Part shown: piece by piece, positions 11,004 through 63,853 of the stretch
Layout: each line of letters starts with the position of its first letter
Numbering within the stretch: the first letter of the stretch is position 1
Assembly: GCF_010672455.1 (NCBI RefSeq)
Contig: NZ_JAAHGO010000046.1
Span: 1-64,000 of the forward strand
Source of the DNA: Okeania sp. SIO2C9
Lineage (GTDB): Bacteria > Cyanobacteriota > Cyanobacteriia > Cyanobacteriales > Microcoleaceae
DNA length: 64,000 nucleotides
Reading direction: 5' to 3'
Notes under the pieces: generated by a model
The model's database searches: none
Told to the model about the DNA's origin: nothing
What the model saw: the letters and a program-made list of their open reading frames with translations, nothing else
Position numbers and translations under genes: made by a program

Positions 11004-11970
11004 TCACCAGCAAAAAAATTTGTAGGAAACACCTGTGAGAAATGCTTCTAAGGTTTCTGTAAAATTTGTCAAAGGCTTCTGAGCATAACGTTTTCTTAGC
11101 CCTCCCATTAATTGCTGATAAATAATGAAAGTATAGGCTGTAAAAACAAAAACAAAGTGACGTATGAGACTGGTTTTATTTCTTACTTGATATTCTTTTA
11201 AACCTAACCACCCCTTGGCTTCTCTATAAAACTTTTCAGGTAGTGGTGCATTGTAATTTTTTCGGTAACGGTATAGCAAGCATTTCAGCCACCATTCACC
11301 ATTACTATACAGGACTACCACTTTTCAATATAGTTTCTATGAGAAAAGGTTGCCACTATCCATTCTCCTGTTAGGTTTTTATCTTGTTTATTAGTGATTA
11401 AATAATCAACTTCAGTTGCATCTTTTACAGAACTATTATTCATGACGATTGCAATAGTTCTTTGACCACTCAGACCTTTGATTTCAGCTTCATATGGTAG
11501 CTACCCACACTGTCTTCGGTACATCTTGTTCTAAGGTGACTTCTTGAAAATCCTTTTGAGGTAAAGACAATGCAATTTCATCTAACCTTTTTTATAAGTG
11601 TTTTTTCCTGGTTTTTCGATTGATCACACTGACTTAGCGATTCTTCGCAAAACCACCTATATAGTTTAGTTATAGCCTTTCTAGCTCTTCTAAAAATGAG
11701 GAATTATTACCATAACCTCCATCCATTAAAACTACACCAGGACGATATTTTCTGGACAAAGTTTTATGAATTAATTTGAGTGCTAAATCCGGTTTTTTGA
11801 CAAATTCTTTATCTTCTTTTCCAGAAGGAAAAGAGGATGAACTTTGATATAATTCAATGTCTATTGGGAGAGTTCTCTCTCCATCATATAAATGGCTTGT
11901 AACTATCACTATTCCATTGTCTGTTTTACCAATTTCCCCAAGATATTGCCTACCTACTCCTGAAGTAAAA
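11004..11970 (-). pseudogene. IS701-family transposase relic
   Basis: A DDE transposase of the IS701 type in several frames. In minus-strand order: GRQYLGEIGKTDNGIVIVTS and the catalytic-domain stretch VVLMDGGYGNNSSFLEELE; then DEIALSLPQKDFQEVTLEQD; IKGLSGQRTIAIVMN; GEWIVATFSHRNYIEK; and the final part FYREAKGWLGLKEYQVRNKT (catalytic Glu) running to the stop at 11004. The true N-terminus is missing where the repeat element at 11971 begins. Between IEK and FYREAK an 81-bp element has inserted with an 8-bp target duplication, shifting the frame. The apparent start at 11321 comes from that insert and is not real. Confidence 0.8.
11239..11319 (-). mobile_element. 81-bp MITE with 8-bp target duplication (copy 1)
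   Basis: Flanked by perfect direct repeats ACTTTTCA at 11231-11238 and 11320-11327. Both ends start GGTAGT when read inward. The 81 bases are identical to those at 54667-54747, which have a different flanking duplication. It lies inside the IS701 transposase relic, and removing it plus one duplication restores the transposase sequence. It encodes no protein. Confidence 0.88.
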
Positions 11971-12178
11971 TCACCGAATAATTAAGGTTTAAAGCCTCTC
12001 CTAAGCTGCGCCACGAGCTGTCGCTCTACAAGGAGAAACAGCGGTGGAGGGATGGCTCCTAAACCTGCGCCATATCCAATCGACCAAGAGAAGAAAAATT
12101 TTTCATGATTAGTCAATCAATTCCGTTTTCACTCTCGAGGTAATAATTAATAATTAATAATTAATTATTAATTGTTGA
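11971..12178 (-). repeat. dispersed ~200-bp hairpin-bearing element (copy A)
   Basis: Reverse-orientation copy of a family found about eleven times in the window. The family starts with an AATTAATAATTAAT-type tract, carries CTTGGTCGATTGGATATGG in the middle and GGAGAGGCTTTAAACC near the end, and finishes in TTAATTATTCGGTA. This copy abuts the broken 5' end of the IS701 transposase relic. Confidence 0.7.
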
Positions 12179-54479: not shown

Positions 54480-54666
54480 CGCTCAAAGTTTTATCGGCTC
54501 AGTTATTCTTATGAATAATTAGGGTTTGCTTATGGAAGTCTTTTGGTATAGGGTAGGAGTCAGGAATCATATAAAATCCGGTTAAATAGTTATAGATTGG
54601 TTAAGTAAGGAGGAATCAGGAGTCAGGAGTTAGCAGTCAGGATTAGAGAGAATCACAAAGATATAG

Positions 54667-54747
54667 GGTAGTCCTGTATAGTAATGGTGAATGGTGGCTG
54701 AAATGCTTGCTATACCGTTACCGAAAAAATTACAATGCACCACTACC
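54667..54747 (+). mobile_element. 81-bp MITE with 8-bp target duplication (copy 2)
   Basis: Flanked by perfect direct repeats AGATATAG at 54659-54666 and 54748-54755. All 81 bases match copy 1 (11239-11319, opposite strand), which has a different duplication. The left end is GGTAGTCCTGTAT and the right end read inward is GGTAGTGGTGCAT (10 of 13 equal). The flanking 54480-55161 has no gene, only AGGAGTCAGGAG-type repeats. Confidence 0.88.
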
Positions 54748-55161
54748 AGATATAGTAGTTATGACGATTGAAGATTTTTTTTATGTCCAATTAAACGGAT
54801 TTGATATCAGGAGTCAGGAGGAATGGGGAATTTAGAGGAGTTAGTCAGATATTTTATCCCTTGATTTTTCTGCAATTATTCTGCCTTTTATCCTAACTTT
54901 TTGGTTGCTCAAGCTTAAAAAGTTGCACTTTTTTACAGCGAAAAAAAGCTACAACCTTTACCTGTTAATGCTTTTAGATTTAATCAGCATAGCAATAATT
55001 AATCAAAAATTTTGATATATTTAGAGAATTAGCTGATTTTATATAGTGTTTTTATTTGAAATGTAAATCTAGATTAAGGTTTTTTTTATAAAAAAAAGTG
55101 CACTGATGGAGTAGCTTATATCCTTGTGTTTGCTAGTATTTATTGCTGTTTTCTCTCCTTT

Positions 55162-63095: not shown

Positions 63096-63853
63096 GGCGT
63101 TGCTGAAAAGTAATGATAAATGTTCTATAATTACCCACATGAAATGTCCAAAATGTAACTCCACCAAAACCAGAAAAAACGGCCATCGTCGTGGCCAACA
63201 ATGTTTCCAATGCCGAGTATGTGGTCGGCAATTCCTTGAATCCCCGAAAATGCAACCCTATTCACCACAGATTAAAGAACTATGTCTCAAGATGTATGTT
63301 AATGGTATGGGTTTACGAGGTATCGAACGAGTAACAGAGATTGATCATACAACCGTTATCAAATGGATTAAAGAGGCAGGTATCAAATTACCGGATGCAC
63401 CCGAAGAGGAGGAAATACCAGAAATAACTGAAATTGATGAGTTACAGACTTATCTGGGAAATAAGAAAAACAAAGTTTGGATTTGGACAGTAGTGAACCA
63501 TTGGAAGCAAGGAATCTTGTCCTGGGTCATAGGCGATCGCAGTAATAAAACCTTTCAATATTTGTGGTCAATAATTAAGTGCTGGCATAGTTTTTGGTAT
63601 GTAAGTGATGGTTATTGTGTATACCCTTGTTTTATTGCAGAGAGAGGATCACGCGCGTGAGTAAAACTTATATGACCAGGGTAGAAGGGGAAAATACTCG
63701 ACTACGACATTACCTAGCTCGCCTTCACCGCAAAACCCTTTGCTACTCGCGCGTCCCTTGAGATGCTCAAGTATTCCATTCGTCTTCTGCTGCACTATCT
63801 TAAATTTCAAACTCTTCCTATCGAAGCATAAATCATTACCAATCAGCAACGCC
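63096..63853 (+). mobile_element. IS1-family insertion sequence, 758 bp
   Basis: Ends are imperfect inverted repeats: GGCGTTGCTGAAAAGTAATG at the left, and GGCGTTGCTGATTGGTAATG read inward from the right (17 of 20 equal). It is flanked by perfect 8-bp direct repeats CTTCTCCG at 63088-63095 and 63854-63861. It carries one transposase gene, which is frameshifted. The insertion interrupts a laminin-B-domain gene. Confidence 0.92.
63139..63831 (+). pseudogene. IS1-family transposase with two frameshifts
   Basis: The single-frame cyanobacterial IS1 transposase starts at MKCPKCNSTKTRKNGHRRGQ (zinc ribbon CxxC...CxxC) with an HTH around LRGIERVTEIDHTTVIKWIK. The DDE domain is present in WIWTVVNHWKQGILSWVIGD and YVSDGYCVYPCFI. 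The frame breaks near 63650 (GAGAGAG next to CGCGCG), continues as VSKTYMTRVEGENTRLRHYL, breaks again near 63750 at TCGCGCG, and ends LEMLKYSIRLLLHYLKFQTL...A and TAA at 63829. The in-frame product stops at 63660 without the conserved C-terminal block, so this copy is probably inactive. Confidence 0.82.

What the first reader, a model, noticed from the sequence alone, without database searches (positions are those of the whole stretch)
11231..11327. 81-bp transposable element, two identical copies, each with its own 8-bp target duplication
11239-11319 and 54667-54747 are identical over all 81 bases in opposite orientation, yet flanked by different perfect 8-bp repeats (ACTTTTCA and AGATATAG). 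This is direct proof of recent transposition by an exceptionally small element. One copy knocked into an IS701 transposase, so the order of events is readable. The ends GGTAGT...ACTACC do not match the IS1 ends in this window.
Basis: seen in the sequence. Interest (0 to 1): 0.75.

Follow-up and report, generated by a model that had tools for sequence, protein, structure and literature searches.

The report
Tiny IS1-type hitchhiking transposable element
An 81-base piece of DNA with no gene of its own has copied itself about thirty times into one cyanobacterial genome, most likely by borrowing the enzyme of a known kind of jumping gene (IS1); this is a well-known kind of element, made a little more interesting by an apparently long history across related genera.

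Summary
The two 81-bp copies (11239-11319, 54667-54747) are identical, in opposite orientation, each with its own perfect 8-bp target duplication. The genome holds 30 copies at >=99% identity (16 identical, 14 with one substitution); 24 have perfect 8-bp duplications and one a 7-bp one. Uninterrupted sites with a single target were seen in relatives or paralogs for 13 of the 24. It is a transposed element, not a segmental duplication.

It is best read as a MITE of the IS1 family. Its right end matches at 21 of 22 bases the terminal repeat GGTAGTCCTGCATAGTAATGGT that bounds three IS1 elements of 783-805 bp; two of these, in related genomes, have 8-bp duplications, and one looks intact (Okeania). 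In this draft genome only a damaged 805-bp IS1 with these ends was found, so the active enzyme source is inferred. "Exceptionally small" is overstated: cyanobacterial MITEs of 77 bp are in print.

Full-length relatives occur in two other genera and, singly, in two other families. One genome of another genus has 18 diverged matches, 7 with perfect duplications, suggesting an old lineage that re-amplifies. New member of a known kind.

The parts
11239..11319 (+). 81-bp IS1-type MITE, copy 1 (left end GGTAGTGGTG at 11239)
11231..11238 (.). target duplication ACTTTTCA, left
11320..11327 (.). target duplication ACTTTTCA, right
   Evidence: single copy at an uninterrupted paralogous site
11239..11257 (+). 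left terminal inverted repeat GGTAGTGGTGCATTGTAAT of copy 1
11301..11319 (-). right terminal inverted repeat (reads GGTAGTCCTGTATAGTAAT on - strand) of copy 1; 21/22 with the IS1 terminal repeat when extended to 22 bp
54667..54747 (-). 81-bp IS1-type MITE, copy 2, identical, opposite orientation
54659..54666 (.). target duplication AGATATAG, left
54748..54755 (.). target duplication AGATATAG, right
11007..11228 (-). downstream open piece of the transposase remnant interrupted by copy 1
   Evidence: no Pfam match on its own
11673..11981 (-). upstream open piece of the same remnant, Pfam DDE_5 (IS701-type by recall)
   Evidence: E 1.2e-14

Best explanation
[quoted passage not shown] It codes for no transposase. 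Its two imperfect inverted ends (left GGTAGTGGTGCATTGTAAT, right GGTAGTCCTGTATAGTAAT) are taken to be the binding and cleavage sites for the transposase (InsAB) of an IS1 subgroup whose full elements are 783-805 bp with ends GGTAGTCCTGCATAGTAATGGT. The transposase would act in trans, cut at the outer GG/CC and insert the element at A+T-rich 8-bp targets, which are duplicated on repair. SHOWN from sequence: the element's exact edges, 30 near-identical copies, 8-bp duplications, uninterrupted sites, and ends and duplication length shared with IS1 elements. INFERRED: that InsAB of this subgroup is the enzyme, that it acted in trans, and that an intact source was or is present in the host.
For: 30 copies at >=99% in the own genome, 24 with perfect 8-bp duplications. 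Uninterrupted sites with the target once for L003, L005, L006, L008, L010, L012, L013, L015, L021, L022, L023, L024 and L027, i.e. 13 of the 24 duplication-bearing copies (in L008, L021 and L027 the target itself differs by one base or gap). Right end 21/22 to the IS1 terminal repeat; the two window copies are the only 21/22 matches in 64 kb on both strands, next best 17/22. The own genome's 805-bp element with this repeat at both ends encodes an InsA-type zinc ribbon PF03811 and DDE_Tnp_IS1 PF03400. Elements with perfect 22-bp ends and perfect 8-bp duplications: L110/L160 (789 bp, GACTATCT, Okeania sp. SIO2F4; insA frame, A9 run, insB frame) and L114 (783 bp, GAATAGTT, stops in frame). The same ends bound longer elements without a transposase in this genome: of 20 tabulated (91-416 bp), 15 have perfect 8-bp duplications, 2 have 7 of 8, 3 have fewer. 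A+T in targets 78% against 65% in flanks. Print support that IS1-family elements can pair GGTGGTG-type ends with 8-bp duplications: the composite insert bounded by ISAba3-like IS1 elements in PMC6382973 (passages).
Against: No intact IS1 with these ends was found in the own genome: the 805-bp copy has no duplication and its insA frame is broken, though its insB frame is open. Of the nine IS1-transposase matches in the genome, the other three without stops (C24:588871 at 61%, the window's own at 36%, C245:25367 at 28%) showed no such pair of ends (C24 had one weak end at 5 mismatches). The left end is a poorer match (16/22 to its own right end; positions 7-8 are GG, not CC). Similarity to IS1 seems confined to the ends (read by eye). 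Four of 30 copies have no duplication and one only 6 of 8. No activity was observed.
Confidence: 0.92

Rival explanations
1. Segmental duplication, gene conversion or an ordinary dispersed repeat (REP-like), not a transposon.
For: Short, without a gene, hairpin-capable on one strand (z -3.30 for the - strand).
Against: Identity ends at 81 bp; 24 of 30 copies have different perfect 8-bp duplications; uninterrupted sites hold one copy of the target.
Confidence: 0.01
2. A MITE moved by a different transposase family that also makes 8-bp duplications (ISL3, IS66, IS256 or IS1595 types, duplication lengths recalled), as for the 187-bp Microcystis MITE assigned to ISL3.
For: Duplication length alone does not decide; PMC11448079 (passages) shows an 8-nt-duplication MITE with ISL3-type ends in a cyanobacterium.
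Against: Ends GGTAGTCCTG... match IS1 elements at 21/22; the one transposase-bearing element among the end pairs examined in this genome is IS1. The Microcystis MITE begins GGCTCTTCG. I did not survey the other IS families of this genome for these ends beyond the end searches.
Confidence: 0.04
3. The element arose recently in this species by internal deletion of a resident IS1, rather than being an old lineage.
For: 30 copies with at most one substitution each look like one young burst.
Against: Relatives of the same length at 78-90%, interior included, occur in other species of the genus, in genera g4 and g11 and singly in two other families.
Confidence: 0.06
4. The element is kept for a function as an RNA or DNA hairpin (regulatory RNA, terminator or attenuator), besides being mobile.
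For: - strand fold -24.2 kcal/mol, 0 of 200 shuffles as low; over 14 diverse copies a consensus fold of 20 pairs is kept, including an inner 9-pair stem (columns 15-23 with 47-55) broken in 9 of 126 cells; one copy sits just upstream of a maf-like reading frame (L013, label recalled).
Against: Covariation term only -0.03, one pair of 20 with a two-sided change; the inner stem repeats the end motif, so its pairing may follow from the end sequence; + strand of the own copy is ordinary (z -0.43); no Rfam match in the window.
Confidence: 0.07

Closest known systems
IS1 family insertion sequences (subgroup with ends GGTAGTCCTGCATAGTAATGGT, e.g. the 789-bp element of Okeania sp. SIO2F4, L110/L160)
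   Same: Terminal repeat 21/22 at the right end; 8-bp target duplications
   Different: No insA/insB; left end differs at positions 7-8 (GG) and 14 and beyond 19; about a tenth of the size
MITEAba12 of Acinetobacter (PMC6382973; abstract and passages)
   Same: 113-bp element without a gene, terminal repeats and duplication length shared with a resident IS, similarity to IS confined to the ends, spread over species, one genome with duplications at 17 of 22 copies
   Different: Partner is ISAba12 with 16-bp ends and 9-bp duplications, not IS1
187-bp Microcystis MITE (PMC11448079; passages)
   Same: Cyanobacterial, 33 identical copies in one strain, 8-nt duplications, gene disruption
   Different: ISL3-type ends GGCTCTTCG; 187 bp
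MITEs of Anabaena sp. 90, 77-541 bp (PMC3542288; passages)
   Same: Size range includes 81 bp; some cause pseudogenes
   Different: Authors found no IS with matching ends in that genome ('type II')
Nezha MITE of cyanobacteria (known here only from a reference-list entry in PMC10969869; paper not read)
   Same: Cyanobacterial MITE called active in its title
   Different: Not compared; sequence not seen

Membership tests
MITE | short, no transposase gene | tested here: met
   81 bp, too short to encode a transposase
MITE | terminal inverted repeats | tested here: met
   imperfect: 16 of 22 identical between ends
MITE | many near-identical dispersed copies with target duplications | tested here: met
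   30 copies, 24 with perfect 8-bp duplications
MITE | ends and duplication length shared with an autonomous IS | tested here: met
   IS1 elements L042, L110, L114 share the ends; L110 and L114 have 8-bp duplications, L042 has none
IS1-family MITE | co-resident intact IS1 with these ends | tested here: inconclusive
   only a damaged 805-bp copy found in a 317-contig draft; intact-looking one in another genus
IS1-family MITE | mobilised in trans by InsAB | not testable with these tools
   needs an assay
IS1 family (the partner) | InsA zinc ribbon plus IS1 DDE transposase | tested here: met
   PF03811 E 1.2e-7 and PF03400 E 1.2e-17 on L042 frames; L110 not run through Pfam, but its product is 80% identical to the L042 one over residues 27-168
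IS1 family (the partner) | two frames joined by -1 slippage on an A run | tested here: inconclusive
   L110 has an insA frame ending just after an A9 run with the insB frame following; slippage itself not tested

The most novel reading that the evidence does not exclude
The 81-bp element is not a throw-away deletion product but an old, self-standing parasite lineage: it has kept its length, its interior and its unequal ends (GG left, CC right at positions 7-8, in contrast to CC/CC in the three IS1 elements with these ends) across three genera of one cyanobacterial family and, in single copies, two further families, riding whichever IS1 transposase is present and bursting independently in at least two genera. 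The unequal ends, seen in all 11 transposase-less elements of different length tabulated, would then be an adaptation, for instance to keep so small an inverted repeat from forming a perfect cruciform or to set the order of end cleavage.
Probability: 0.3. Interest if true: 0.5.

Novelty: new member of a known kind. Interest (0 to 1): 0.3.

Why it matters
It gives a clean case in which edges, targets, uninterrupted sites and partner IS type can all be read, and it suggests a near-minimal substrate for an IS1-type transposase. The possible long life of an 81-bp lineage, with bursts in different genera, bears on whether bacterial MITEs are short-lived by-products or durable parasites. Among the titles and abstract openings listed by the paper searches (several listed only part of their matches, and one search matched mostly unrelated words) I saw none about an IS1-family MITE in cyanobacteria; the library lacks most subscription journals and ISfinder was not available.

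Tried and rejected
Regex search with indels shifted the element edges and gave false short duplications; replaced by coordinate-based reading. An exact 27-base pattern in genome contigs found nothing (the window's own or very near genomes may be left out there), a 24-base pattern in viral contigs found nothing, and the 81-mer found nothing in plasmids. Rfam over the window: none. A comparative fold in a script returned an empty structure with zero energy, which I do not rely on; the tool's consensus fold was used instead. The tree of 28 rows has one well-supported inner branch out of 25; it shows clustering by genome but no firm order; it holds 4 own rows (the consensus and three of the one-substitution variants) and 24 others, all of 81 bp. 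One search used 14 copies chosen for diversity. Recombination between copies as the cause of missing duplications: comparing by eye the flank octamers of the copies without duplications, I saw no swapped pair. Papers read in passages without a bearing on the partner: PMC2246112, PMC3718332, PMC4853749 (its MITE has 10-bp repeats).

Limits of the counts. It allowed like ends to pair, and only the 805-bp IS1 came out as a close right/right pair; still, the end patterns themselves favour GG-left and CC-right elements. Of the pairs printed there, three (C1:176752-176876, C24:561030-561175, C253:954-1093) are not in the table, and three longer lines (577, 1452, 3300 bp) were alternative pairings that I did not pursue. 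Uninterrupted sites: one search held 22 of the 24 sites (L001 and L017 left out) and its list was cut by a very common repeat at the L024 site; the sites not among the 13 were not tested one by one. For L004 alignments span the place but the target octamer differs, so it is not counted. One search scored up to 15 candidates a genome and only 2.

Full report
OBSERVATION. In the whole genome that holds the window (10.88 Mb, 317 contigs) there are 30 full-length copies at 99-100% identity. 16 are identical and 14 have one substitution each; 24 have perfect 8-bp duplications (24 different octamers), L014 has 7 bp, L007 matches at 6 of 8 positions, and L016, L019, L025 and L029 have none. The first look scored 40 of 124 candidates, but an independent search of the left end gave 33 exact hits, of which 28 are among these 30 (the other two copies have a change inside the left 19 bases) and five belong to other elements. 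The count of young copies is therefore probably complete for this draft.

INSERTION SHOWN. I compared the flanks, joined without the element and one duplication, with other species of the genus and with paralogs in the same genome. For 13 of 24 duplication-bearing copies a continuous site with one target octamer was seen: L003, L005, L006, L008, L010, L012, L013, L015, L021, L022, L023, L024, L027; in L008, L021 and L027 the target differs by one base or gap. L005, L006 and L010 have it in own-genome paralogs (L005 also in G003), the others in G001-G004. For L004, the second window copy, alignments span the place but the target octamer differs, so I do not count it. The remaining sites were not tested one by one. 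Two copies lie 45 bp apart with different duplications (L001 and L017), so they are two insertions.

PARTNER. Sequences like the two ends are very frequent in this genome: 221 places for the left and 131 for the right 19-mer at up to 3 mismatches, against 4 and 6 for the patterns read backwards. Pairing 68 left and 47 right listed places gives elements of 91 to 416 bp and one of 805 bp. Of 20 shorter ones tabulated, 15 have perfect 8-bp duplications, two have 7 of 8 (L039, L045), and three (L043, L050, L053) have fewer. The 805-bp element encodes an InsA-type zinc ribbon and an IS1 transposase, but its insA frame is broken and it has no duplication. In relatives, L110 (789 bp; same end coordinate on its contig as Okeania sp. 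SIO2F4, L160) and L114 (783 bp) have perfect 22-bp ends and perfect 8-bp duplications. L110 has the layout of IS1: an insA frame, a run of nine A, then the insB frame. The MITE's right end matches these at 21 of 22. Against this reading: no intact IS1 with these ends was found in this genome.

HISTORY. Diverged copies of the 81-bp layout lie in all five genomes searched of the genus. In the family 12 of 61 genomes match at E<=0.001, G008 and G060 only at the right end and G054 only in part. In the order 13 of 388 genomes match at E<=1e-5, including single full-length ones in two other families (G234 84%, G197 78%), neither with a duplication. Genome G007, another genus (its IS1 ends at the same contig coordinate as that of a Trichodesmium-labelled assembly, L161), has 18 matches of which 7 have perfect 8-bp duplications. 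Rows cluster by genome on a tree (6 label changes against a shuffled mean of 11.3, 0 of 200 as low), but single nodes are weak. I read this as an old element that burst at least twice; transfer between lineages is not excluded.

STRUCTURE. The - strand of the own copy folds better than shuffles (z -3.30), the + strand does not (z -0.43). Over 14 diverse copies the consensus keeps the pairing of the ends and an inner 9-pair stem that repeats the right-end motif, with almost no covariation (-0.03; one pair of 20 changed on both sides). This neither shows nor excludes a selected hairpin. All 11 transposase-less elements tabulated have GG at positions 7-8 on the left and CC on the right, while L042, L110 and L114 have CC on both; the patterns used to find them favour this, although like ends were allowed to pair. 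An IS1 with a GG end exists in the genus (L093), so common descent explains this as well as selection would.

CONTEXT. Copy 1 interrupts a decayed DDE_5 transposase. Most sites are outside long reading frames: 6 of 30 have an open frame of 100 or more codons across the junction. Targets are A+T rich (78% against 65%).

LITERATURE. MITEs of 77-541 bp in Anabaena sp. 90 (PMC3542288), an 8-nt-duplication ISL3-type MITE in Microcystis (PMC11448079) and MITEAba12 (PMC6382973) are close parallels; of each I saw passages only. Verdict: an ordinary kind of element, a new IS1-type member, with an interesting age.

Noticed in passing
63096-63853 (+): An IS1-family element of 758 bp with ends GGCGTTGCTGAAAAGTAATGAT/GGCGTTGCTGATTGGTAATGAT and perfect 8-bp duplication CTTCTCCG; transposase PF03400 E 1.5e-7.
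   Followed up: partly
own genome, e.g. L046-L060: Larger MITE families with the same ends, notably a 146-bp one with near-identical copies and 8-bp duplications, and relatives (106-169 bp) differing in the number of AGATGGGG-like units inside.
   Followed up: partly
54640-54820 and L010: Copy 2 and the L010 copy lie about 20 bp apart in register within the same interspersed repeat (...TGTCCAATTAAACGGATTTGAT); one search lists 10 own-genome places that align across the joined L010 site.
   Followed up: no
L013 left flank: An 81-bp copy lies just upstream of a reading frame that looks like maf (label recalled, not searched); could affect its transcription.
   Followed up: no
L033, L034, L072, L073, L080, L081, L084: An old 81-bp relative appears in several places with nearly the same left flank (AATTGATTTTAT), i.e. 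carried inside another repeat family, in three species of the genus (own, G002, G003).
   Followed up: no
L042 1500-1560: The 805-bp IS1 seems interrupted by a short GCGTTCGCGTAGCGTCCCGTAGGGAATCGC-type cyanobacterial repeat (repeat type recalled).
   Followed up: no
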